The translations under genes were made by a program, and so were the position numbers. Below the pieces are notes generated by a model. That model searched no databases. It was not told the DNA's origin and worked only from the letters and a program-made list of their open reading frames with translations. A stretch of 64,000 bases of DNA from Leptothermofonsia sichuanensis E412 (lineage in GTDB: Bacteria; Cyanobacteriota; Cyanobacteriia; Leptolyngbyales; Leptolyngbyaceae). Position 1 is the stretch's first letter; each line of letters begins with the position of its first letter. Shown one piece after another: positions 19,951 through 41,377 of this stretch. Where the stretch lies: the NCBI RefSeq assembly GCF_019891175.1, contig NZ_CP072600.1, forward strand, positions 1,798,001-1,862,000, in the 5' to 3' direction.

Positions 19951-20127
19951 GCAGATTAACCCTTCAGTTCACAAGGCATCAATATTAACAGGGGATAGGA
20001 GACGGAATTATTTTTGTTTCTGGCAACCTTTATTTTTCTTAATAAATTAGCTTATACTTTGCAATGTAAGTTTACATCTCTCTTGGTCTGTTTCAAGTCC
20101 CCCTCAAGCAGTGCTTGGAGTTTTTCC

Positions 20128-20796
20128 ATGAAATTTAATCAGGTTCCTGCCATCCTTGGTCTGGCAACTGCCGCTATTGCCCCGGCGATCATCGTTCACT
20201 CTGCGCCAGCCAGTGCTGCCACCTTCCGCCTCTTTTCGGGGGTGACGAGTGTCTTTCTCGATTTGCCGACACTGGAGACGGTTGGTTTATCGCTCACCGG
20301 AGCAAGTGATACGGTTGACCCTGTTTCCAGTGATTTTCTGGTTGGGTTTCCGATTACACCTGCAACGACCTTCACCTTTAGCTTTGACAGTGGGAGTGGT
20401 TTCGCGCCAGTTAGCGGCACAATTGAGCATAGTGGCTCAGTCACATTCAACAATGCACTGACTCTGGGTAATTTCTCCATTGGGTTTGATCCAGCCCGTG
20501 CGGTTGGAGATGCCAGTGGATTCTTCGTGAGAGATACGATTACGCTTGGAGCAATCCTGTTTGATCTGGCAACTCCCAGCAGTCTCACCTTTGCCGATGA
20601 CAATCTGGCAGTTCAAGGAAACCTGCTGGTTTCTCCTGAACTGGCAGGTGTTCTGGGTAACAGTGGTCTTGCTGGGGCCACCATCGGAGTTGCCAGTGTC
20701 AACGGAGAGGCTGTGCCTGAGCCAGCTACGATTATGGGCGTATTGGCTGCCGGTGGATTTTTAGCTGCCAGCCGTCGCCGTGCCCTGAAAAAGTAA
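20128..20796 (+). CDS. PEP-CTERM sorting-signal protein
   Basis: 222 residues from ATG at 20128, chosen because GGAG is 8 bases upstream and the ATG begins a clean signal peptide (VPAILGLATAAIAPAIIV, cleavage near ASAAT). The body is a low-complexity beta-rich exported domain (FRLFSGVTSVFLDL...). The C-terminus has the full PEP-CTERM signal: VPEPAT, a hydrophobic helix and a terminal Arg cluster SRRRALKK. Such proteins are processed by an exosortase and linked to exopolysaccharide export. No exosortase gene is in the window. A perfect 23-bp hairpin starts 8 bases after the stop. Confidence 0.88.
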   Translation: MKFNQVPAILGLATAAIAPAIIVHSAPASAATFRLFSGVTSVFLDLPTLETVGLSLTGASDTVDPVSSDFLVGFPITPATTFTFSFDSGSGFAPVSGTIEHSGSVTFNNALTLGNFSIGFDPARAVGDASGFFVRDTITLGAILFDLATPSSLTFADDNLAVQGNLLVSPELAGVLGNSGLAGATIGVASVNGEAVPEPATIMGVLAAGGFLAASRRRALKK

Positions 20797-24926: not shown

Positions 24927-26840
24927 ATGCGTACCCCCAAAGATTTTCCATATTGCATTGTAAAGTTTTATAAATTTGCCTGGTCAGGCTTGTTCTTTTG
25001 CTTTATTCCATCAAACTATGGTAAAAGAACCCTTTTGCAGCAGGCTATGTTGCCCGGACGACCCTCCTCTCAGCAGTCGCTACTCAACCATCCTGATCAG
25101 GAATCAACTTTAACGGTCCCTGGTCAACCATCTGGGGAAAATCAGTTGCTTTCTTCTGTTTTGGACCAGGCGGTTGATGCGATCGCCCTGGTGGATGAGG
25201 GGGGATACTTTATCGAAGTCAACACGGCTGCCTGCAAGCTTTTGGGGTTGACGCCAAAGACTGCATCAACCCATACCCTGTCCAACTTCACAGGAGTTCC
25301 ATTTGACCCCAAACCACAGAAGCCGGGCGATCAGGATGACAACCAACTACCTCAGGAATGTTTGCTGTCCTCTGCAAATGGGGTTCGGCGATATGTGGAA
25401 TATACCCTGACGCCCAATGTGCATCCCAATCGGCACCTGCTGATTTTGCGCGATGTCACTGCCCGCAAAGAACAGACAAATCATGCCCTGCGGCAAGAAC
25501 GACAACGGGTTGAATTGTTTTCGGACGTGACACTGAAAATCCGGCAGTCGCTCCATATCAGGGAAATTCTGCAAACTACAGTGACGGAAGTCCAGCGAAT
25601 TTTGCAGGCTGATCGTGTCCTGATTTACCAGGTCTTGCCCGATGGCACGGGTAAGCCAATCAGTGAGGCAGTCCTGCCTGACTATCCACAGATTGTGGGG
25701 ATGGAGTTTCCAGAGGAGGTTTTCCCGGAGGACTATCAGGCACTGTATGCCCGGGGAAGAGTACGGGCGATCGCCGACGTGCATGACCCTGCTGCCGGAT
25801 TAGCCGCGTGCCTGGTGGACTTTGTAAACCAGTTTGGCGTCAAAGCCAAGCTGATTGTGCCCATCCTACAAACCCTGGATTCTTCTCTTCAACAACCATC
25901 CAAAGCCCAGAATCAGATCTGGGGACTGTTGATTGCCCACCAGTGCAACAGCCCCCGACAATGGACTGACTTTGAACTGGAACTGATGCAACAACTGGCC
26001 GATCAAATCAGTATTGCGCTTGCCCAGGCTCAACTGCTGAGCCAACTGGAAGATAGGGTAGAAGCCCGCACTGCCGAACTCCAACAAGCGAATCGCAGTC
26101 TGCACCAGGAGATTGATGATCGGATACAGGCAGAAGCGGCTTTACGCCGAAGTCACGAGCAAATGCATGAATTGATTTCCCTAGTCAGCCACGAGCTTCG
26201 CACTCCTCTCACCTCCCTGCATAGTGCTTTAAGGATTCTGACTACCGGACAACTGGGCAGCCTCACCAGTGACGGACAGCAAATGCTGGCAATGGCTGAT
26301 GACATTACCGGGCGGCTGATACGACTGGTTAATCGTGTTCTCGATCTGCAACGGATTGAGTCTGGAAATATCACGATGGAGAAGGAAACCTGCGATGCGG
26401 CTCACTTGGTGACTCAGGCAGTAGAGGCGATGCAGTTAATGGCAAAGCAGCATAACATCAGGCTTGTAACCAGACTCTCTCCTATCCAGATCTGGGCAGA
26501 TCCTGACTATATCTTGCAGGCATTAACCAATCTGCTCAGTAATGCCATCAAATTTTCACCACCTGGAGAAACCGTTTATCTGACAGTGGAGCAGCTTGAC
26601 GCCGAAGTGCGGTTCCAGGTCTGTGACCAGGGACAGGGCATCCCAGCCCACAAATTGGAAAGTATTTTTGAGCGCTTCCAACAGGTTGATTCCTCTGATT
26701 CACGCAGAAAAGGAGGCACGGGTTTGGGACTCACGATTTGTCGCAGAATTATAGAGCAACATGGCGGCAGAATTTGGGCAGAAAGTACGCCGGGTAAAGG
26801 CAGCACATTCTGGTTTACCCTGCCAGCATTGCGCCCGTGA
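24927..26840 (+). CDS. PAS-GAF histidine kinase, green/red cyanobacteriochrome-like (RcaE-like)
   Basis: 637 residues counted from ATG 24927; the start is uncertain (TTG 24921 or ATG 25047 are alternatives). Domains: PAS at about 68-185, GAF at about 195-375, coiled coil, HisKA with His422 in SHELRTP, and HATPase with NLLSNAIKFS, DQGQGIP and GTGLGL. The GAF is of the bilin-binding type (GRVRAIADVHD, VKAKLIVPIL, WGLLIAHQC, RQWTDFE). Cys295 sits at the chromophore position and is followed by Leu296 rather than His. With Glu264 and Lys308 this reproduces the protochromic triad spacing I recall for RcaE (Glu217/Leu249/Lys261). In described RcaE and CcaS the PAS follows the GAF; here it precedes it. 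Two regulators and pcyA follow downstream. Confidence 0.85.
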   Translation: MRTPKDFPYCIVKFYKFAWSGLFFCFIPSNYGKRTLLQQAMLPGRPSSQQSLLNHPDQESTLTVPGQPSGENQLLSSVLDQAVDAIALVDEGGYFIEVNTAACKLLGLTPKTASTHTLSNFTGVPFDPKPQKPGDQDDNQLPQECLLSSANGVRRYVEYTLTPNVHPNRHLLILRDVTARKEQTNHALRQERQRVELFSDVTLKIRQSLHIREILQTTVTEVQRILQADRVLIYQVLPDGTGKPISEAVLPDYPQIVGMEFPEEVFPEDYQALYARGRVRAIADVHDPAAGLAACLVDFVNQFGVKAKLIVPILQTLDSSLQQPSKAQNQIWGLLIAHQCNSPRQWTDFELELMQQLADQISIALAQAQLLSQLEDRVEARTAELQQANRSLHQEIDDRIQAEAALRRSHEQMHELISLVSHELRTPLTSLHSALRILTTGQLGSLTSDGQQMLAMADDITGRLIRLVNRVLDLQRIESGNITMEKETCDAAHLVTQAVEAMQLMAKQHNIRLVTRLSPIQIWADPDYILQALTNLLSNAIKFSPPGETVYLTVEQLDAEVRFQVCDQGQGIPAHKLESIFERFQQVDSSDSRRKGGTGLGLTICRRIIEQHGGRIWAESTPGKGSTFWFTLPALRP

Positions 26841-26939
26841 ACCATCAAAACCTGTAGTGATCCAGTTTGGATTTTGAGAGAGGATTCCCAGCAATCCTCT
26901 CTTAAACCTATACTCTCATACCTGATTCAGAACAGCTAT

Positions 26940-27314
26940 ATGTCAACCCGATGCATCCTAATTATTGATGATGAAGAAACCATTCAAACTGTGGTAAGGT
27001 TTGGCATTCGCATGGCAGCCGGTTGGAAAGTATTGACCGCCAGTTCAGGGGCCATTGGCATTCAGACCGCCCAGATCGAAAAGCCCGATGCGATTTTACT
27101 GGATGTAATAATGCCTGACATGGACGGCATCACTGCTTTTAAGGCACTTCAATCCCACCCTGAAACCAGACACATTCCGGTCATTTTTCTCACCGCAAAA
27201 GCACAGGCAACTGAAAAGCGTCAGTTTAGTGATTTGGGAGTCAGTGGCGTTATTACCAAACCGTTCAACGCGCTGGATCTGCCAGAGCACATTGCCCGCA
27301 TTTTGCATTGGTAA
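26940..27314 (+). CDS. Single-domain response regulator (RcaF-like)
   Basis: 124 residues from ATG at 26940; a stand-alone CheY-type receiver. The acidic pocket is IDDE near residue 10, the phospho-acceptor is Asp55 in LLDVIMPDMDG, the switch Thr is in FLTAKA and the Lys is in TKPF. It has no output domain, so it should act as a phosphate shuttle between the sensor kinase 100 bases upstream and the HPt-containing regulator 10 bases downstream. RcaF in Fremyella is a receiver-only protein of this size in the same place in the pathway. Confidence 0.9.
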   Translation: MSTRCILIIDDEETIQTVVRFGIRMAAGWKVLTASSGAIGIQTAQIEKPDAILLDVIMPDMDGITAFKALQSHPETRHIPVIFLTAKAQATEKRQFSDLGVSGVITKPFNALDLPEHIARILHW

Positions 27315-27324
27315 TCATCAAACT

Positions 27325-29181
27325 ATGAAGATCTTACTGGTTGAGGACGATGATGCAATGGTTGGGGTCTTGACCAGGACTCTGACAGATCATCATTTTG
27401 TAGTGGATGTCGTCAAAGATGGGGAAAATGGTTGGACCTATGGGTCAACGTTTGAGTATGACCTGATTGTGCTGGATATCATGTTACCCAAGCTGGATGG
27501 CATCACCCTGTGCCAGCGCCTGCGGACAGAGGGATATACCACACCTATCCTGCTGCTGACTGCCCAGGATACCAGCACAGCCAAGGTTAAAGGTCTGGAT
27601 GCCGGAGCGGATGACTACGTCGTCAAACCGTTTGATATGGCAGAGTTGATTGCCCGGATTCGGGCACTCCTGCGGCGGGGGAGTACCAATCCTTTTCCAT
27701 TACTGGTTTGGGGCGATTTGCTGCTCAACCCAAGTACCTGTGAGGTGACCTATGATGGTCAACTTCTCAATCTGACCACCAAGGAATATGAACTGTTAGA
27801 ACTTTTATTGAGAGACAGTCACCATGTTTTTAGTGCTGAGGAGATCTTAGATCGGCTCTGGTCTTCTGAGGAGTTTCCGGCAGAAGCGACTGTGCGATCG
27901 CACGTCCGTCGCTTGCGTCAAAAACTGCAAGCGGCGGGTGCGCCTCATGATTTCATCACGACCCTGCACGGGCGGGGCTATTATCTGAGAGCACCCGTGC
28001 AGGAGACGCTTCCCCCGCCTGCAATCCCCTCTTTACCTGCTCCACCGGAACTGGCAAACCGGTCTGCCCTGGGCTATGGGGATGACTTGCAAACCGACTA
28101 TCTGAGGTTTCTCAACGAAATCTGGACAACGACGAAAACCACTAGCCTGGAGCAACTTACAACCATAGCAAAAGCCATTAAGGACTTGAAGGGATTATCC
28201 CTCAGTCAGCAGCGGCAGGAACAGGCCCAGCAGATTGCCCACAAGCTGGCAGGAACATTGGGTATTTTTGGACTGACGAAGGAAGTCCAAATGGCACGCC
28301 ATCTGGAACATTTGCTGACCAGCGCCACTCCCCTGCAACCCAAATATGCGGCGCTGCTTGAAACCCTGGTACAGGACTTACAGCAGGAAATTCGTAAAAC
28401 AACGTCCATCCAATCGTTCTACCGAGCACCAGAGCATTCACCGCTGCTGCTGCTGGTGGATCAGGCGGCAGACCTGGTTCAGGCATTAACAGCCCTGGCG
28501 GCAACCCGGGGAATTCGCACAGCGATCGCCTCAACCCCCGCTGAGGTTAGAGGTTGGATGGATAGAGAACTTCCCGATTCAATCTTACTGCGGCGCTCTT
28601 CCCCTGATTGTCTGGAGTTGTTACAGACTATCTCCTGCCAGCACCCTACCCTGCCAGTTCTGGTGTTGGGTCAGGGCAGTGGGTTTGCTGAACGCCTGGA
28701 AGTCGCCCAGCGGGGAGGTAAGTTTTTGCTGGAAGAGTCTGTGACACCAGAGCAGATCGTATCCTGGGTGGCGCGATCGCTTGATAGCCCCCAGTTTGAG
28801 CCTAAAATTATGGTTGTGGATGATGACCAGGACTGGCTCCAGACGTTGCCCACCCTGCTGAGTCCCTGGGGATTTAAGATCACCACACTGGCTGACCCGC
28901 AGCAATTCTGGATGGTTTTGCAAACCGTGGTTCCAGATGCGCTGGTGCTGGATGTAAATATGCCACAGATTAATGGGTTTGAACTTTGCCAGGTCTTGCG
29001 CAGTGACCCCCACTGGCAGCGACTGCCTGTGTTATTCCTCAGCATCCTGTCCGATTCTAAAACCCAAAACCAGGCATTTACAGTCGGTGCTGATGATTAT
29101 TTGTGCAAACCTGTGATGGGTATTGACCTTGCCAGGCGAATTCTAAATCGGTTACAGCGTATGAAGGTGTGGGCAAGCTAA
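27325..29181 (+). CDS. Receiver / OmpR DNA-binding / HPt / receiver regulator (RcaC-like)
   Basis: 618 residues. Receiver 1 has Asp51 in VLDIMLPKLDG. A winged-helix OmpR/PhoB domain spans about 125-222 (LTTKEYELLELLL, VRSHVRRLRQKL, GRGYYL). The HPt domain has His306 in AHKLAGTLGIFG. A degenerate receiver without the acceptor Asp (SILLRRSS) spans about 372-485. The C-terminal receiver (about 493-610) has Asp543 in LVLDVNMPQING. RcaC of Fremyella diplosiphon has the order receiver-DNA binding-HPt-receiver with its first acceptor at Asp51. RcaC binds the L box; an exact L box lies 3' at 30710-30727 upstream of cpcB. Phosphate probably flows kinase to receiver-only protein to HPt to receivers. 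The start at 27325 follows the previous stop by 10 bases. Confidence 0.9.
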   Translation: MKILLVEDDDAMVGVLTRTLTDHHFVVDVVKDGENGWTYGSTFEYDLIVLDIMLPKLDGITLCQRLRTEGYTTPILLLTAQDTSTAKVKGLDAGADDYVVKPFDMAELIARIRALLRRGSTNPFPLLVWGDLLLNPSTCEVTYDGQLLNLTTKEYELLELLLRDSHHVFSAEEILDRLWSSEEFPAEATVRSHVRRLRQKLQAAGAPHDFITTLHGRGYYLRAPVQETLPPPAIPSLPAPPELANRSALGYGDDLQTDYLRFLNEIWTTTKTTSLEQLTTIAKAIKDLKGLSLSQQRQEQAQQIAHKLAGTLGIFGLTKEVQMARHLEHLLTSATPLQPKYAALLETLVQDLQQEIRKTTSIQSFYRAPEHSPLLLLVDQAADLVQALTALAATRGIRTAIASTPAEVRGWMDRELPDSILLRRSSPDCLELLQTISCQHPTLPVLVLGQGSGFAERLEVAQRGGKFLLEESVTPEQIVSWVARSLDSPQFEPKIMVVDDDQDWLQTLPTLLSPWGFKITTLADPQQFWMVLQTVVPDALVLDVNMPQINGFELCQVLRSDPHWQRLPVLFLSILSDSKTQNQAFTVGADDYLCKPVMGIDLARRILNRLQRMKVWAS

Positions 29182-29366
29182 CCCATCTTCAGATTCTCAC
29201 AGGACATCCACCACGGTAAGATAGCGATCCTGCCCATCGATTGATCCTTAGCGGTTCTGGCTCCAGCTCAGTCTCATGCTCCTGTAGCAGGTGCCCGGTG
29301 TCAGGGTGGAAAGGAAGACAGGCCAGGGTTTTGCGCTTTTCCTGTTTCCTGACTCTGATGGTTACC

Positions 29367-29394
29367 GCTATATCCACTGAGCTATATCCACTGA
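29367..29394 (+). promoter_or_regulatory. Perfect 14-nt tandem repeat before pcyA
   Basis: GCTATATCCACTGA occurs twice in immediate tandem, ending 32 bases before the pcyA start codon. It could be a duplicated regulator site or part of the pcyA leader. Function is not established. Confidence 0.45.
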
Positions 29395-29426
29395 TGCAAA
29401 CCTACCCTATACGGAGAGTGCAGCCA

Positions 29427-30179
29427 ATGAATAACCCGGCCAAAGCTTCCCTGCGCGAACAGCAGCAACCCTTGATTCGCAAACTGGCAGACTGCATTGA
29501 GGACATCTGGCAGCGACATCTTGACCTGTCCCCTTATGTTGTCCCAGAAGGGTTGGGTTATGTGGAAGGAAACCTTGAAGGCGATCGCCTGGTGATTGAA
29601 AACCATTGCTATCAGACCCCCCAGTTTCGGAAACTCCACCTGGAACTGGCGCAGGTCGGTAATTCCTTAGATATTCTTCACTGCGTTATGTTTCCCAATC
29701 CAGCCTATGCCCTGCCCATCTTTGGCGCAGACCTGGTGGGGGCACGGGGTGCAATCAGCGCGGCGATCGCCGATCTTTCTCCCATCAATAGCGATCGTTC
29801 CCTGCCAGAAAAGTATCACACTGCCCTTGCGGCCTTACCTCCTGTGCAGTTTTCCCAACCCCGTGAGTTGCCCCAGTGGGGCGACATTTTTTCGGAATTC
29901 TGCCTGTTTGTGCGCCCATCGGGCAGTCAAGAGGAACAGGCTTTTCTTCAACGAGTCCAGGAATTTTTGACACTGCACTGCCAGATTGCCCGTACAGAGG
30001 CGCCCCTGAATTCCCAGCCAGCGATCGAGGATGTACTGGCAGGACAGAAATATTACTGCCTCAAACAGCAACAGAATGACAAAACCCGGCGGGTTCTGGA
30101 AAAATCCTTCGGCTCTGAATGGACGGAGCAGTACATGACCACCATGCTGTTTGACTACAGCAGTAGCCATCAAAGTTAA
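29427..30179 (+). CDS. pcyA: Phycocyanobilin:ferredoxin oxidoreductase PcyA
   Basis: 250 residues from ATG at 29427 with GGAG upstream; the longer upstream frame is not family-like. PcyA reduces biliverdin IXalpha by four electrons from ferredoxin to phycocyanobilin, the pigment of phycocyanin and of cyanobacteriochromes. The catalytic residues known from Synechocystis (Glu76, His88, Asp105) correspond to Glu73, His85 in LHCVMFP and Asp102 in FGADLVG, all present. Position between an Rca-like phosphorelay and the cpc operon joins sensing, chromophore supply and antenna protein. In Fremyella pcyA is reported to be under Rca control; no exact L box is visible in the 245 bases upstream here. Confidence 0.96.
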   Translation: MNNPAKASLREQQQPLIRKLADCIEDIWQRHLDLSPYVVPEGLGYVEGNLEGDRLVIENHCYQTPQFRKLHLELAQVGNSLDILHCVMFPNPAYALPIFGADLVGARGAISAAIADLSPINSDRSLPEKYHTALAALPPVQFSQPRELPQWGDIFSEFCLFVRPSGSQEEQAFLQRVQEFLTLHCQIARTEAPLNSQPAIEDVLAGQKYYCLKQQQNDKTRRVLEKSFGSEWTEQYMTTMLFDYSSSHQS

Positions 30180-31060
30180 GCCACATTAGAAAGCTCAAAC
30201 CCCTATTCTGTTGGCTTGCCTCCTCTACCTCTGTCCCCAGTTCCCTACTATTGGGATCGCCCTGTGGGGAAATAGAACTACTAAAAGCCTGCCCCAAAAG
30301 CCCCAACGGCCAACGCCCAAACCCAGACCGAGAACATTTTCGGATAGACTTTCAGCCCCATTGGTGCAGCCTGCCCAGAGGACATAGAGCACCAGGACCT
30401 CGCTTTGCATCCTTTGTGCCTTCGTGGTCAGTTCCACAGATGGTTAAATCCTGAATCCCTTGACTTTGGATTTTGCCTTCTGCCCTCTGTCTTCTGCCTT
30501 CTGTAAACATCTCTGAAAACAAACCATCATTTTTTAGCCCCAGGACATAAACAAAATTAAAATTCCGTCATTAAAGTTAAGAAATGTTACTTTAAGTAAA
30601 GATAGATTAAGGGGCCGGAAAATCAAGAAAAGCTGAAAATGCCTGCCATACGAGACTTTTCCAGTCTTCTTAACACTTCTTAATCGACTTTTTTCCAGGA
30701 AGCTTTCTCTTGCACAAGATTTGCACAAATAGGTTGCTTTAATCGTGGTGGTTCAAAAGGCGCTGGACCCTTGCCTGAAAAACAGGGGTTCAGGTTTCTC
30801 AAAGCTCATTAGATGGCTTTCTATCATCTGAGTAGATGAGTTTTTGGTTGTTGTTGTGGATATTCCTCATGTCTTGGACTGTGATTTCCCTCTGAACCGG
30901 CAAACAGTATTAGGACTTAACTCCCCTATACCAAATCAGGCGAGATCGTTCGCCAGATTTTGTATGCCTGTTCTCCATCAAAATTTGCAGTTCGGTATCC
31001 GGAACAACCTTCGCTTTTGAGCCAGATCATACTCAACCAAAATGATTAGGAGATTTTGGA
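30180..31060. promoter_or_regulatory. Long cpc operon leader/promoter region
   Basis: 881 bases without a gene. After a CACAAAG fragment (30401-30430) the DNA becomes AT-rich (30540-30730), ending in the L box at 30710-30727. Beyond it are nested short inverted repeats, for example GGACCC...GGGTTC near 30766-30792 and CTCAT...ATGAG near 30806-30841, which could fold in the 5' leader. AGGAG precedes cpcB. The transcription start itself is not identifiable by eye. Confidence 0.6.
30710..30727 (+). promoter_or_regulatory. Exact RcaC L-box direct repeat upstream of cpcB
   Basis: TTGCACA-AGAT-TTGCACA, a perfect 7-4-7 direct repeat. It equals the published L box (TTGCACA-N4-TTGCACA) bound by RcaC in red-light-responsive promoters of Fremyella diplosiphon. 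It lies 333 bases before the cpcB ATG, and the RcaC-like gene is 1.5 kb upstream. Confidence 0.8.
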
Positions 31061-31579
31061 ATGCTAGACGCGTTTACTAGAGTGGTTTCTCAGGCAGATA
31101 CCCGAGGCGAGTATGTAACCGATTCTCAAATCGATGCCCTGAAGAATATGGTGTCTGAAGGCAGCAAGCGCCTGGATGTTGTAAACCGGATTACCGGCAG
31201 CGCTTCTGCGATTGTTGCTGATGCTGCACGGGCACTGTTTGCAGAACAGCCCCAGTTGATTGCTCCTGGTGGTAATGCTTACACCAACCGTCGGATGGCT
31301 GCTTGCCTGCGTGACATGGAAATCATTCTGCGCTACGTCACCTACGCTATCTTCACTGGCGATGCCAGCGTTCTGGACGATCGCTGCCTCAACGGTCTGC
31401 GTGAAACCTACGCCGCTCTGGGTGTTCCCGGTGCTTCTGTGGCAACAGGCGTCAACAAGATGAAGGAATCTGCTATCAGAATCGCTAACGACCCCAATGG
31501 TGTAACCCGGGGTGATTGCAGCGCTCTGATGGCTGAACTGGGCAGCTACTTTGATCGCGCTGCCGCAGCGGTGGGCTAA
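31061..31579 (+). CDS. cpcB: C-phycocyanin beta subunit
   Basis: 172 residues, standard CpcB length and sequence ([18 protein letters not shown]). The two phycocyanobilin attachment sites are Cys82 in AACLRDME and Cys153 in RGDCSALM. Asn72 in GGNAY, which is gamma-N-methylated in the family, is present. It forms heterodimers with CpcA that stack into phycobilisome rods. It is the first gene of cpcB-cpcA-linker-linker-cpcD, with AGGAG before the ATG. An L box lies far upstream. Confidence 0.97.
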
Positions 31580-31706
31580 ATTCCAAATTCGTCATCGTCA
31601 TCCGTCATCAGGCATTTGCTTTTGACCAATGGCAACTGGCGAGTGCTCAATGTCAGATAATTCATCTATTTTGTCAACTTTGCACAATCATTGAGGTTCA
31701 TTCAGT

Positions 31707-32195
31707 ATGAAAACCCCTTTAACAGAGGCAGTCGCAACCGCGGATTCCCAAGGACGTTTCCTCAGCTCTACCGAAATGCAGGTTGCTTTCGGTCGTTTCC
31801 GTCAGGCGGCTGCTAGCCTGGATGCAGCAAAAACCCTGAGTGCCAAAGCTCAATCTCTGGCCGATGGTGCTGCTAACGCTGTATACCAGAAGTTCCCCTA
31901 CACCACCCAAATGCAGGGCAACAACTATGCTTCTACCCCGACCGGCAGAGCAAAGTGTGTGCGTGACATCGGTTACTACATTCGGATGATCACCTACTGT
32001 CTGATTGCTGGCGGTACTGGGCCTATGGATGATTACCTGATTGCAGGTTTGGCTGAAATCAACAGCACCTTTGAACTGTCTCCCAGCTGGTATGTTGAAG
32101 CGCTGAGATACATCAAGGCTAACCACGGTCTGAGTGGGGATCCTGCTGTAGAAGCTAACTCCTACATTGACTACGCGATCAACGCCCTGAGCTAA
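31707..32195 (+). CDS. cpcA: C-phycocyanin alpha subunit
   Basis: 162 residues, full length ([20 protein letters not shown]). Phycocyanobilin attaches at Cys84 in [10 protein letters not shown]. The C-terminus IDYAINALS is the usual one. It pairs with CpcB, 127 bases upstream. A terminator-like stem-loop with a T-run follows at 32208-32284, before the linker genes. Confidence 0.97.
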
Positions 32196-32207
32196 GGGTT
32201 TCCTTTT

Positions 32208-32284
32208 GCCCAGAACAGCAGAATCCTGCTAGTGCTTGACCTCCTGTATGAGCAGTGTTCTGAAGTTCTGGGCACCGTTTTTTT
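32208..32284 (+). terminator. Stem-loop with T-run between cpcA and linker genes (attenuator)
   Basis: TGCCCAGAAC (32208-32217) pairs with GTTCTGGGCA (32266-32275), followed by CCG and six T. The loop has an inner AGCAG/CTGCT hairpin. In many cyanobacteria a partial terminator after cpcBA keeps linker mRNA below subunit mRNA; this element is placed to do the same. Confidence 0.65.
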
Positions 32285-32310
32285 AAGTTGGACATTAAGG
32301 GAGCTCAGAC

Positions 32311-33129
32311 ATGACAAGTTCTATGGCGGCTAGACAGCTAGGATTTGAGCCATTCACCCAGGTATCCCCTGTCGAACTGCGGGCAAATTGGACGGAAGAA
32401 GACGTGCAGGCAGTGATTAATGCGGCTTACCGTCAGGTATTTGGCAACGATCACATCATGGAGCGTGAACGGCTCACCAGTGCTGAGTCACTGCTGCGAC
32501 AGGGTTCAATTACAGTACGGGATTTTGTGCGGGCACTGGCCCAGTCCGAACTGTACCGAAAAAAATTCTTTCACTCAACACCCCAGGTGCGCTTCATTGA
32601 GCTGAACTACAAGCACCTGCTGGGACGTGCCCCCTATGATGAGGCAGAGATCGCCTACCATGTGGATCTCTATACTCAGAAAGGGTATGAAGCAGAGATT
32701 GATTCCTATATTGATTCGCTGGAATATCAAGAAAACTTTGGAGAAGCGATCGTTCCCTACTATCGAGGCTTTGAAACGCAGCGGGGACAAAAAACAGCCG
32801 GCTTCAACCGGATGTTTCAGCTATATCGAGGCTATGCCAACAGCGATCGCGCTCAGGGTAAAAACAAAGCAGCCTGGTTAACCGAAGATCTGGCTCGGAA
32901 TTTACCCACCCCAGTACGGACCCCCTGTTTTGGGCGGGGATTGGCGGGTAACACGGGCGGCGATCGGGAACAACTCTATCGGGTGCGGGTCATGCAGGCA
33001 GATAGCGGACGGACACCCCAGATCCGGCGCAGCGTGAAGGAGTACCTCGTTTCCTATGATCAGCTCTCACCGACGCTTCAACGGCTCAACCAGCGGGGTA
33101 GCCGGGTCGTTAGCATTTCGGCTGCTTAA
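32311..33129 (+). CDS. Phycobilisome rod linker polypeptide (CpcC-type), first copy
   Basis: 272 residues. The N-terminal PBS-linker domain (about residues 20-150) has [44 protein letters not shown] and [14 protein letters not shown]. The C-terminal CpcD-like domain has LYRVRVMQ and [22 protein letters not shown]. Linkers sit inside phycocyanin hexamers and set rod order and energy transfer. It is about 60% alike by eye to the second linker at 33345 and arose by duplication. One of the two probably serves core-distal discs; which one cannot be told. Confidence 0.93.
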
Positions 33130-33344
33130 AAACCTATCCGCAAACTTCCTCAGTCTGAGTTTGGGCTTTGCTGGGACTTTTCGGATGGACATTAAGCACG
33201 ATGCATGGGGATCCTTCTGTGAAGTTGTTTAGCCATTGAGCAAAATCTTAAAGCGCTAAAAGCTTCGCAACTGGTGCGTTACGGTAACACGAACGCACCT
33301 GACCTTTATTAGGTAATCAAATTTGTTTTGAAGGAGAGTTATTT

Positions 33345-34214
33345 GTGGCAATAACAACGGAAGCTTCTCGCTTGGGGACAGATGCCTTTAGCAATGCCAG
33401 CCCGGTTGAACTGCGCCCCAACTGGACCGCTGAAGACGCTAAACAAGTGATTCAGGCCGTTTATCGTCAGGTACTGGGCAATGACTATTTAATGGCATCA
33501 GAGCGCCTCACCAGCCTTGAATCCCTGTTATGTAATGGTCAACTTACTGTACGTGAATTCGTCCGGGCAGTTGCCAAGTCTGAACTGTACAAAACCAAAT
33601 TCTTTTACCCCAATTTTCAAACCCGGGTGATCGAATTGAACTTCAAACACCTGTTAGGTCGCGCTCCCTACGATGAATCTGAGGTGATTGAGCATCTGGA
33701 TCGTTACCAGAATCAGGGATACGAAGCAGATATTGACTCCTACATTGATTCTGCGGAGTATGAGGCCAACTTTGGCGATTCTATTGTGCCTTACTACCGG
33801 GGCTTTTCAACTCAGATGGGGCAGAAAACCGTTGGGTTCACCCGCATGTTCGCCCTCTATCGGGGCTATGCCAATAGCGATAGCTCTCAGTTGGCGGGTT
33901 CCAAATCCCGACTGGCTGCTTCCCTTGCCAAAAATACCGCAGCTCCTGTAATCGCACCTTCCGGTGGTAGTGGGGGCTTCGGCTACCTGCCATCTGCTAA
34001 AGGAACAACTCCAACCCGTGTGTTTGGTCGAGCAACGCCCGGAACTTCCAGCCGTCTTTACCGGATTGAGGTATCTGGAATCAGTCTGCCAAGGTACCCG
34101 AAGGTTCGCCGCAGCAACCGGGAATTTGTCGTTCCCTATGAGCAGCTAAACAGCACTCTCCAGCAAATTAACAAGCTGGGCGGAAAAGTAGCCAGTGTGT
34201 CCCTTGCCCAGTAG
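33345..34214 (+). CDS. cpcC: Phycobilisome rod linker polypeptide CpcC, second copy
   Basis: 289 residues from GTG at 33345, preceded by AAGGAGAG. It has the same two-domain layout as the previous gene: PBS-linker domain ([38 protein letters not shown]), a Gly/Ser/Thr-rich hinge near 205-225, and a CpcD-like domain ([29 protein letters not shown]). The 215-base gap before it holds no gene. Its start [11 protein letters not shown] is typical of the 30-33 kDa rod linkers. Confidence 0.94.
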
Positions 34215-34386
34215 TCTGGCCAGGACAGAAGCACGATGATTTCGGGAACTGGAAGTCAGAATTCAGGAGTTAGAGAGTCCTGCTGTTCTGACTTCTGACT
34301 TCTGAAGCCTGTTTTCCTACTCTACGCCTGTATTTTGCCCATCTCAGAAAATTGCGCTAAGACCACATCTAGGAGATATTGCAGCA

Positions 34387-34632
34387 ATGATAGGACAATC
34401 TGCCTTAACAAGAGCGTCAGGTTCGGCAGCCAGCAGCCGTGTGTTTGTTTACGAAGTGGCAGGGCTGCGGCAAAATGATCAGACTGATAAAAACACTTAC
34501 CCTGTGCGCAATAGCAGTAATATTTTTCTGCAAGTGCCCTATAGTCGGATGAATTATGAGATGCGCCGCATCACCCAGTTGGGGGGCAAAATTGTCAGTA
34601 TTCGCCCCCTCGAAAGTTCTACCGCCAGCTAG
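34387..34632 (+). CDS. cpcD: Phycobilisome rod-capping linker CpcD
   Basis: 81 residues, a stand-alone CpcD domain (RVFVYEVAGLRQND, NIFLQVPYSRMNYEMRRITQLGGKIVSIRP). It caps the core-distal end of phycocyanin rods and limits their length. It is the last gene of the cpc operon: no cpcE/cpcF lyase genes follow, unlike in many cyanobacteria. The region just upstream (34243-34312) has GTCAGAATT/TTCTGACTTCTGAC inverted reiterations. A perfect hairpin at 34671-34701 follows. Confidence 0.95.
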   Translation: MIGQSALTRASGSAASSRVFVYEVAGLRQNDQTDKNTYPVRNSSNIFLQVPYSRMNYEMRRITQLGGKIVSIRPLESSTAS

Positions 34633-38977: not shown

Positions 38978-41377
38978 ATGCCCATGAAAAGACGAACCCG
39001 TTGGGCGCGCCCGAAGTTGTTGGCAACAACACTGCTGGTAGGTGGTGCGATCGCCCTTCCCATAGCCGCCCTCGCCGATGGTACAACGGCAGGAACCACA
39101 ATTAGTAACACCGCAACAGCGACTTACGAAGATCCAAATGCTCCAGGTGTAACGATTAACGCAACTTCAAATACTGTCGTCGTCACGGTGGCGGAAGTAG
39201 CAGGTGTGACAGCAACTCCCCTGGCAATCACTGATATCAACGGTGGTACTGTCCTACCCAACGATGTGCTGAACTACGACTACCAAATCACCAACGTCGG
39301 TAATGATCCGACTGCCTTCTTCATTCCAGGCAGCGCAACAGTGACGGGTCCGGCTACCGCAGGAACATTGCAAATCAGTACCGATGGTGGTGTCAGTTTC
39401 ACCAATATTCCGGCTGCTGGTTTGACAACGGCTGCGATTCCCGCCGGAGGGTCTGTGATCGTGCGGGTTCCAGTTACGGTTTCGGCACTCGCTCCCTCAG
39501 GGGCGGCCATTGCAGTGCGCCTGGGTAACACTGGCCCCAATGACAATAGTGCAGCGACCCAGAACCAGCCGGATGCCACCGATGGAGCAGGAGCCGACGA
39601 AATCCGCACGGTGGACAACCCTGATGGCACACCGGGTGAAGCCAGTGGTGCCCCCACAAATGGGGAGCGGGAAGCCAGCGCAACGCAACAAATTTTAGTC
39701 GGTTCCCAACCGCAGGCATTTGCCGCAATTTTGAAGATTCGGACCGGCTATAGTGACGCTGGTACGCCAGCCTTGAATGATGATGTATTGACCTATGGGT
39801 TGTCGCTCAGGGTGGATGGGACGGCTCCAGCAGGTTCCAGTGGACTCAGCCCTGCAAACCTGGTGGGCACTTCGTTGAATGTGGATGGGGCTTCTGTCAC
39901 GCAAGTGCTGGTCTCTGATGCAATTCCAGCAAATACGACTCTCACCGGAACCCCAGTTGCCCCAACAGGTTGGACGGTGGTCTATACCAACAGCCCAACG
40001 ACAATTAATGCCAATGCTGCGAACTGGGTAACCAATCCAGCGGCGATCGGTGGCATCAGCAATGCGACCCGAGTTGGATTTATCAGCACCGGCCCGATTC
40101 CTGCTGGTACGACAGTGACAGGATTCAGTTTCCAGGTTGTTACTACGGGAGTTACCGGCACAACTACAATTGCCAACATTGCTCAGCTATTTGGTCAAAG
40201 CCAGGGAGGAGGCACTACCCTGGTCTACGATGAATCGGGTGACCAGGCTCCGAGCAACTTCAATGACGATGGCACACCCGGTTCCAATACACCCACCAAT
40301 GGAGTTGCTAACCCAATTACCGACGGTGTAGACAACAACAATAACAACACTGGCGTGGGACCAGGAGGCGAAGCGAATGTGTACACGATCGCAGCCGCAG
40401 GCACTATTCTGAACGGTCCCAATGGTCAACCCGGAGCGGTTGGTCCTACCGACAACAACGATGACTTTACCAATCGGTCATCGGCAATTCCGGCGAATAC
40501 GGCACCTGGTGCAACCCTCGACCCGGACCCCGTTTCGTTCCTCAACACAATTAACAATCCAACAACCGGCAGCCTGACCAATGTTTTGCTGGTTCCTGAT
40601 GCAACCAACTTTACAGCCGGTACTGGTGAAGTGCTGCCTCCAACTGGAACGACGGTCACCCTTTCCTATGGTGGGCAAACAGCCGTCTATACCTTCAACG
40701 GCACCAACTTTATCTTTACGGCTGGCAGTACTATCACCATCCCCACACTGACGGCAGGGTCCTCGGTCAACTATAGCGTTGCCGTGGATTTGCCTGCTGG
40801 CACACCACTTTCCACTGATACGGGTAATGGATTCTCCATTCCGATTTACGCCTTCCAGGATGTCAACGGCAACGGTAGACCCGATCTGGTGACAATTGAG
40901 CCGACCCAAAACCGAACCATCAATCGAGTCTATACAGGCTTTTTGAGAATGGTTAAGGAGGCTCGCATTCTTGAGAGCGATGGCACAACCGTTGTTGAAA
41001 ACTACACGCAAACTCCCAACAGTGCTAATTTGCGCCCCGGAAGATTGATTGAATACCGAATTACCTACACCAACATTTCCATTGCCCCAGTAGGTGCTGG
41101 CAACGTGACTTTGAATGCCAGCAATGTGGTGATTACGGAAGATGGCACGGTTGGTACCAATACCTGGGCGAGGGACAACGACAGCAATGGTGTAATTGAC
41201 ACCAGTAACGTGGTCGGTTCAGCCGTAGCCCAGTTCGGCACGATCGCCTACGCTCCCAGCGGCGACCAGTCTGGCACGACTCAGGCTACAGACGTGACTC
41301 GCTATACCAACACCCTAGGTATCTCGATCCAGCCGGGAGCCAGTGGTACGTTCGTCTTCCGCCGCCGGATTAATTAA
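38978..41377 (+). CDS. DUF11-type exported surface protein, operon gene 1
   Basis: 799 residues. Basic N-terminus and signal peptide (KLLATTLLVGGAIALPIAALA, cleavage near ALADG). The mature protein is Thr/Ala/Gly/Asn-rich with several conserved-repeat (DUF11-like) beta-sandwich segments: a first with ISNTATATYEDPNAPG, another with YDYQITNVGNDPTAF, and a C-terminal one with RPGRLIEYRITYTNIS...VVITEDGTVG. Cys is absent. It ends in VFRRRIN. Low-complexity Asp/Asn-Gly stretches (NDDGTPGSNTPTNG) could bind calcium. First of five same-strand genes; an inverted repeat at 41394-41435 separates it from the next. Confidence 0.85.
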   Translation: MPMKRRTRWARPKLLATTLLVGGAIALPIAALADGTTAGTTISNTATATYEDPNAPGVTINATSNTVVVTVAEVAGVTATPLAITDINGGTVLPNDVLNYDYQITNVGNDPTAFFIPGSATVTGPATAGTLQISTDGGVSFTNIPAAGLTTAAIPAGGSVIVRVPVTVSALAPSGAAIAVRLGNTGPNDNSAATQNQPDATDGAGADEIRTVDNPDGTPGEASGAPTNGEREASATQQILVGSQPQAFAAILKIRTGYSDAGTPALNDDVLTYGLSLRVDGTAPAGSSGLSPANLVGTSLNVDGASVTQVLVSDAIPANTTLTGTPVAPTGWTVVYTNSPTTINANAANWVTNPAAIGGISNATRVGFISTGPIPAGTTVTGFSFQVVTTGVTGTTTIANIAQLFGQSQGGGTTLVYDESGDQAPSNFNDDGTPGSNTPTNGVANPITDGVDNNNNNTGVGPGGEANVYTIAAAGTILNGPNGQPGAVGPTDNNDDFTNRSSAIPANTAPGATLDPDPVSFLNTINNPTTGSLTNVLLVPDATNFTAGTGEVLPPTGTTVTLSYGGQTAVYTFNGTNFIFTAGSTITIPTLTAGSSVNYSVAVDLPAGTPLSTDTGNGFSIPIYAFQDVNGNGRPDLVTIEPTQNRTINRVYTGFLRMVKEARILESDGTTVVENYTQTPNSANLRPGRLIEYRITYTNISIAPVGAGNVTLNASNVVITEDGTVGTNTWARDNDSNGVIDTSNVVGSAVAQFGTIAYAPSGDQSGTTQATDVTRYTNTLGISIQPGASGTFVFRRRIN

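What the first reader, a model, noticed from the sequence alone, without database searches (positions are those of the whole stretch)
24927..34632. Rca-type chromatic acclimation circuit linked to pcyA and the phycocyanin operon
Seen: a bilin-type GAF kinase, a receiver-only protein, and a receiver/DNA-binding/HPt/receiver protein in one run, then pcyA, an exact L box, and cpcBA with rod linkers, all on one strand within 10 kb. Known: RcaE, RcaF and RcaC form this phosphorelay in Fremyella diplosiphon and act through the L box on red-light genes. Inference: this strain senses green/red light and adjusts phycocyanin (and maybe PcyA) output through a local, self-contained cassette. Physical linkage of sensor, chromophore enzyme and target operon is unusual to my knowledge and could move as a unit.
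Basis: partly seen in the sequence, partly recalled or inferred. Interest (0 to 1): 0.85.

Follow-up and report, generated by a model that had tools for sequence, protein, structure and literature searches.

The report
Red-light phycocyanin switch with trimmed sensor
A hot-spring cyanobacterium carries the known green/red colour-sensing relay beside the phycocyanin genes it probably controls; the arrangement is common, but its light sensor lacks an internal domain and the genome holds two other colour-sensing systems.

Summary
In detail: rcaE-rcaF-rcaC, pcyA, an exact L box and cpcBA-C-C-D lie on one strand. The sensor GAF is 76% identical to Fremyella RcaE and keeps the bilin cysteine; RcaC has the receiver/OmpR/HPt/receiver order. 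By sequence it is a type-III chromatic acclimation (CA3) relay. The claim that the linkage is unusual fails: 12 of 52 other loci examined have the same order on one strand, in five families, 9 of the 12 with the L box in the same place.

Three things are less ordinary. (1) This RcaE lacks the PAS domain between GAF and kinase that 42 of 46 aligned rows keep; engineered PAS-less CcaS can invert its colour response. (2) The genome (size equal to Leptothermofonsia sichuanensis E412) also has CcaS/CcaR, with the genome's best G-box match beside the phycoerythrin-linker operon, and a far-red RfpABC cluster. (3) The rca relay of a congener is not sister to this one and sits beside phycoerythrin genes.

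Best reading: red light raises the second phycocyanin operon through RcaC and the L box, while phycoerythrin answers mainly to CcaSR. Light response and polarity are untested, and pcyA has no L box of its own here.

The parts
25047..26840 (+). rcaE: PAS-GAF-HisKA-HATPase green/red cyanobacteriochrome kinase; the PAS between GAF and HisKA is missing (alternative ATG near 24927)
   Evidence: Pfam; best PDB matches are RcaE GAF (8k9o, 7ckv); residues C255, E224, L256, K268, H382; GAF tree
26140..26190 (+). place of the missing PAS domain: pre-PAS helix runs straight into the HisKA helix (approximate)
   Evidence: alignment; AlphaFold2 model shows one helix over residues 308-399
26940..27314 (+). 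rcaF: receiver-only protein, Asp55
   Evidence: Pfam; 53-81% identical to RcaF of the other loci
27325..29181 (+). rcaC: receiver (Asp51) / OmpR DNA-binding / HPt (His306) / receiver (Asp543)
   Evidence: Pfam; residue positions
29427..30179 (+). pcyA: phycocyanobilin:ferredoxin oxidoreductase, the only copy found in the genome
   Evidence: NCBIfam; PF05996 search gives three genes, of which two are pebB and pebA by NCBIfam
30710..30727 (+). L box, exact
30732..30744 (+). promoter block GGTTGCTTTAATC just downstream of the L box, shared with cpc L boxes of relatives
   Evidence: L-box sites listed
31061..31579 (+). cpcB (linker-bearing phycocyanin operon)
   Evidence: TIGR01339
31707..32195 (+). 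cpcA
   Evidence: TIGR01338
32311..33129 (+). cpcC-type rod linker 1
   Evidence: Pfam
33345..34214 (+). cpcC-type rod linker 2
   Evidence: Pfam
34387..34632 (+). cpcD rod-capping linker
   Evidence: NF058509

Best explanation
This is a CA3-type RcaE-RcaF-RcaC relay that raises expression of the linker-bearing phycocyanin operon in red light through the L box at 30710. Shown by sequence: gene identities, key residues, an exact L box in a promoter block shared with relatives, grouping of the GAF with RcaE, and absence of the middle PAS. Inferred: RcaE with phycocyanobilin autophosphorylates in red light, RcaF passes the phosphate to RcaC, and RcaC-P binds the L box and activates cpcBACCD; without the PAS the GAF drives the kinase through one continuous signalling helix. 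Also inferred: green-light phycoerythrin output is set mainly by the separate CcaS/CcaR-G-box system, and the relay gets its chromophore through the adjacent single-copy pcyA, transcribed either from the rcaEFC promoter or from one of its own that is not L-box driven.
For: Domains. GAF 76% identical to Fremyella RcaE against 46% for the strain's own CcaS-like GAF. Cys255, Leu256 and Lys268 in 45 of 46 aligned rows, Glu224 and His382 in 46 of 46. RcaC phospho-residues. Exact L box, unique in the genome, in a block shared with cpc L boxes of relatives. A second cpcBA exists, described as cpcB-A-E without rod linkers in PMC10053587 (passages); its best upstream L-box match has 4 mismatches. G box: the only 1-mismatch hit in the genome lies between the ccaR-like gene and the PE-linker operon, and 5 of 5 other CcaS-bearing genomes examined have one with 1-2 mismatches beside ccaR. 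AlphaFold2 gives one helix 308-399. PMC8256508 (passages) states that RcaC-P on the L box activates pcyA and cpc2 in red light.
Against: No expression, spectral or phosphotransfer data exist here. Loss of the PAS may alter or invert output: of 11 PAS-less CcaS constructs two behaved like wild type, two were inverted, one was constitutive and six showed no or negligible output (PMC5121610, parts 1-2 of 4). pcyA lacks an L box here though four relatives have one before it. The window's place within the RcaE clade is not resolved. At up to 3 mismatches the G-box pattern has 12 genome hits against 9 for the reversed pattern, so only the best hit and its two neighbours carry weight. The physiology seen for E412 compares white and far-red light and photoperiod, not red and green (PMC8997340, passages).
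Confidence: 0.75

Rival explanations
1. The PAS-less RcaE has changed output: inverted colour polarity, constitutive activity or a sharper switch, so cpc is not simply red-induced.
For: The PAS is absent; engineered PAS-less CcaS variants include inverted and constitutive ones (PMC5121610); GAF-to-His lengths of five natural PAS-less RcaE rows fall in two helical registers (58, 51, 51 and 54, 33 residues; modulo 7 = 2, 2, 2, 5, 5).
Against: Kinase and GAF residues are intact and the L box is at cpc, the usual red-on target. The register comparison is after the fact, on five sequences; L109 has lost the bilin Cys and L188 has a changed H box.
Confidence: 0.2
2. The relay controls the whole antenna (PE and PC) as in Fremyella, and the CcaSR genes are accessory.
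For: In PCC 7335 and Fremyella the L box also represses pebAB (PMC8256508, passages).
Against: No L box with up to 2 mismatches in the PE/peb cluster at 1.10-1.12 Mb, while a G box and a ccaSR-like pair sit there.
Confidence: 0.15
3. The GAF kinase is a CcaS-type or other sensor only resembling RcaE.
For: The CcaS-like GAF of this genome also has Leu after the Cys (sequence).
Against: Tree and identity; linked rcaF and rcaC; the strain's CcaS-like protein is a separate gene.
Confidence: 0.03

Closest known systems
RcaE-RcaF-RcaC / L box (CA3) of Fremyella diplosiphon and Synechococcus PCC 7335
   Same: Sensor GAF 76% identical, relay order, RcaC architecture, L box at a cpc operon, pcyA, pebAB and PE genes present
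   Different: RcaE lacks the PAS between GAF and kinase; the exact L box is found only at cpc, none at pcyA or pebAB; a CcaSR-like pair is present as well
rca clusters of other cyanobacteria (Pseudanabaena SR411, PMC11377992; here L098, L100, L101, L105, L110-L112, L115, L117, L126, L127, L188)
   Same: rcaEFC, pcyA and a phycobiliprotein operon close together, usually with an L box
   Different: The adjacent operon varies: cpc here, cpeBA in congener L041; the PAS is kept in most
CcaS/CcaR-G box (CA1/CA2)
   Same: A matching pair with a G box is in this genome's PE cluster
   Different: A separate system; its GAF is 46% identical to the RcaE GAF
Miniaturized CcaS constructs (PMC5121610)
   Same: GAF joined to the kinase without the PAS
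   Different: Engineered, from CcaS not RcaE; the natural protein keeps an N-terminal PAS

Membership tests
RcaE | GAF groups with RcaE, apart from CcaS | tested here: met
   76% to PDB 8k9o; the CcaS-like rows of six genomes form one branch (93/100); a seventh, L136, sits alone on a very long branch
RcaE | Bilin-binding Cys followed by Leu, plus acidic and Lys partner residues | tested here: met
   C255, L256, E224, K268. The residue numbers of the Fremyella triad are recalled; they differ from these by 7 each
RcaE | PAS domain between GAF and histidine kinase | tested here: not met
   42 of 46 rows have the insert; Pfam calls it PAS in the two scanned, L094 and L101. That Fremyella RcaE has it is recalled. 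It varies in the family, so I treat this as a variant
RcaE | Green/red photoreversible, kinase active in red | not testable with these tools
   Needs spectra and a kinase assay
RcaC | Receiver-OmpR-HPt-receiver with phospho-Asp/His/Asp | tested here: met
   D51, H306, D543
RcaC | Separate from the same-architecture RfpB | tested here: inconclusive
   38% identical to own RfpB; 41-63% over the long matches to RcaC beside RcaE in other loci, the lowest being L100, L105 and L107; no tree with RfpB was built
CA3 system | L box upstream of a red-light cpc operon | tested here: met
   for the site; red induction itself not tested
CA3 system | PE and PEB synthesis genes in the genome | tested here: met
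   CpeA, CpeB, PebA, PebB over cut-offs
CA3 system | L box at pcyA and pebAB | tested here: not met
   None at pcyA (best 5 mismatches) nor in the PE/peb cluster at up to 2 mismatches. Not universal: an L box stands before pcyA in 4 other loci (L041, L094, L099, L126)

The most novel reading that the evidence does not exclude
RcaE sensors repeatedly shed their middle PAS in nature, giving naturally miniaturised kinases in which helix register sets colour polarity; in this strain the trimmed RcaE has altered or inverted output, retuning phycocyanin while CcaSR and RfpABC run green and far-red responses.
Probability: 0.15. Interest if true: 0.7.

Novelty: new variant of a known kind. Interest (0 to 1): 0.4.

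Why it matters
The circuit itself is known. What is useful is a complete genome of a cultured thermophile in which three colour-acclimation systems appear wired to separate genes, with an intact RcaE that lacks the PAS. It offers a natural counterpart to engineered PAS-less CcaS, and so a direct test of what the PAS does and whether helix register fixes colour polarity. It also suggests that the rca relay is exchanged or replaced between close relatives together with changing neighbours.

Tried and rejected
Rejected: the sensor as CcaS. Rejected: linkage as unusual. An L box next to pcyA was looked for and not found. The 1-mismatch L box at 3,693,503 lies near what I read by eye as rpsL and fusA and is probably chance. 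A strict G-box pattern found nothing; the relaxed one found the site, but its total of 12 hits is little above the 9 of the reversed control. The helical-register comparison is suggestive only. It could not be matched to the CcaS constructs because no PCC 6803 CcaS sequence was at hand. No tree of RcaC with RfpB was built, and no transmembrane prediction was run.

Rows dropped: L097 (same contig as L041) before the synteny count and the relay tree; 14 of 49 loci without long enough relay pieces before the relay tree (35 kept plus window), L108 among them. The 52 synteny loci were chosen by similarity to this RcaE; some hold only a piece of the kinase (L049, L189, L190) or end early: 33 of 52 have 8 kb or more downstream. 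Metagenome assemblies may have collapsed cpcBA copies. The relay tree is a quick one with SH-aLRT support only, and both groups tested on it were picked after seeing earlier trees.

Literature: searches in the held library only. RcaE with PAS loss: 0 papers with 5 of 6 terms. rcaE, rcaF, pcyA, cpcB, gene cluster: 1 paper with 4 of 5 terms, PMC12461855, seen in the listing only. RcaE, CcaS and RfpA together: 3 papers, of which I saw part 1 of 5 and passages of PMC9415938, passages of PMC11931122, and only the listing of PMC13342260. In what I saw of PMC9415938 no strain had all three sensors, but its Table 1 was cut.
Full report
What is there. The window lies in a single-contig genome of 6,426,061 bases. 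That equals the published size of Leptothermofonsia sichuanensis E412, accession CP072600 (PMC8997340, passages). The two phycocyanin sets (cpcBACCD and cpcBAE), one pcyA and one cpeBA described for E412 (PMC10053587, passages) fit what I found. On the + strand lie rcaE, rcaF 26940-27314, rcaC 27325-29181, pcyA 29427-30179, an exact L box 30710-30727, and cpcB, cpcA, two rod linkers and cpcD to 34632.

Sensor. The best solved-structure matches are the RcaE GAF entries 8k9o and 7ckv. In a tree of 55 GAF rows the CcaS-like proteins of six genomes, this strain's included, form one long branch (93/100); a seventh weak match, L136, stands alone on a very long branch. The window GAF is 76% identical to Fremyella RcaE, the own CcaS-like GAF 46%; the window's exact place among RcaE rows is unresolved. 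Cys255, Leu256 and Lys268 are present in 45 of 46 aligned rows, Glu224 and His382 in 46 of 46; the exception, L109, has lost the Cys segment. Calling these the protochromic triad with the Fremyella numbers is from recall.

Missing PAS. The window protein reads PAS-GAF-HisKA-HATPase, with only a helix between GAF and HisKA. In 42 of 46 rows (45 loci plus the window, one pair being the same contig) about 118 more residues stand there, and Pfam calls them PAS in the two that I scanned, L094 and L101. L093, L108 and L109 lack them too, and a later locus, L188, makes five PAS-less sequences. On a 36-row tree of the joined relay (L108 not in it), PAS presence needs at least 3 changes, one of them in the defective L109; holding window, L093 and L188 together is rejected (p 3e-69). 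That these changes are losses is my inference. AlphaFold2 on 29 sequences (mean pLDDT 75.9, pTM 0.40) gives one helix over residues 308-399, from the GAF through His382, with block pLDDT 63-85. GAF-to-His lengths of the five are 58, 51, 51, 54 and 33 residues; modulo 7 that is 2, 2, 2, 5, 5. This was seen after the fact, on few sequences, with L109 (no Cys) and L188 (changed H box) among them, so it is only a lead. Of 11 engineered CcaS constructs without the PAS domains two were wild-type-like, two inverted, one constitutive and six had no or negligible output (PMC5121610, parts 1-2 of 4).

Relay and target. RcaC has Asp51, His306 and Asp543, RcaF Asp55. No exact L box arises in 100 shuffles of the window, and this is the only exact one in the genome; up to 2 mismatches give 42 hits against 10 for the reversed pattern. 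At most cpc L boxes of relatives the pair of half-sites is followed by a GATTGCTTTAATC-like block, also seen in the window; L104 and L100 differ there. The other cpcBA (L055) has a best upstream L-box match with 4 mismatches. pcyA is single copy. L094, L099, L041 (same contig as L097) and L126 have an L box directly before pcyA; the window does not (best 5 mismatches).

Linkage is ordinary. Of 52 other loci, 39 have rcaF and rcaC in the stretch held, 27 pcyA, 16 cpcBA, and 12 the full order rcaE-F-C-pcyA-cpcB-A on one strand; all 12 are among the 33 with at least 8 kb downstream. The 12 come from five family codes (handles). Ten of them carry an exact L box: nine between pcyA and cpcB (L098, L100, L101, L110, L111, L112, L115, L117, L188), one before pcyA (L126); L105 and L127 have none. 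Closeness of rca genes to PE genes and both bilin-synthase genes is reported for Pseudanabaena SR411 (PMC11377992, passages).

Other colour systems. The PE cluster at 1.10-1.12 Mb has pebA, pebB, cpeB, cpeA, linkers, a CpeS, a probable CpeT (named by eye), a GAF-PAS-PAS-kinase with a hydrophobic start seen in its sequence, and an OmpR regulator. Its G-box repeat is the only 1-mismatch hit in the genome, with two 3-mismatch hits next to it; in all, 12 hits at up to 3 mismatches against 9 for the reversed pattern. The five other CcaS-bearing genomes I examined have one with 1-2 mismatches beside ccaR. No L box with up to 2 mismatches lies in that cluster. A far-red cluster at 4.25-4.275 Mb has RfpA (GAF-PHY-PAS-kinase), RfpB (same architecture as RcaC, 38% identical) and RfpC (50% identical to RcaF); the Rfp names rest on architecture and neighbours. 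Of 26 rcaE genomes searched, strong CcaS-like matches occur in G000, G015, G028, G031, G133 and G189, weaker or partial ones in G010, G025 and G109, and RfpA-like matches in 8; G000, G015 and G028 have all three. PMC9415938 (part 1 of 5 and passages) names strains with two of the three; I saw none with three there.

Mobility. The congener G025 (L041/L097) has rcaEFC, an L box, pcyA and then cpeBA. A relay tree with window and L041 together is rejected (p-AU 7e-5; the pair was picked after the GAF tree). L188 (family f23) stands next to L093 (family f1) with SH-aLRT 94. Both fit exchange or replacement of the relay, though L041 is a metagenome assembly.

Verdict. By sequence a genuine CA3 relay beside its cpc target; ordinary in layout; unusual mainly in the trimmed RcaE and in sharing a genome with CcaSR-like and RfpABC-like systems. 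Red induction, polarity and PE control are inferred, not shown.

Noticed in passing
genome 4,247,000-4,275,000 (L154, L155): Far-red photoacclimation cluster with RfpA/B/C-like genes, psaA/psaB, psbA-type and apc paralogues; an extra receiver-OmpR-HPt protein (L155 6318-7445) is 45% identical to the first part of RcaC.
   Followed up: partly
L053 6343-13635 (genome 1,106,342-1,113,634): CcaS/CcaR-like pair with a G box, and next to ccaS a 354-residue linker with no CpcD domain; possibly CpcL-like or an unusual PE linker.
   Followed up: partly
L109 6625-7968: RcaE homologue without the middle PAS and without the GAF stretch holding the bilin cysteine, still beside rcaF and part of rcaC.
   Followed up: no
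L094 10105-12550: Two L boxes, one before pcyA and one before a linker pair without cpcBA; maybe an assembly collapse.
   Followed up: no
window 20014-20796: Protein with a PEP-CTERM-like tail, by eye.
   Followed up: no
window 38978-41377: Long threonine/asparagine-rich, surface-type protein, by eye.
   Followed up: no
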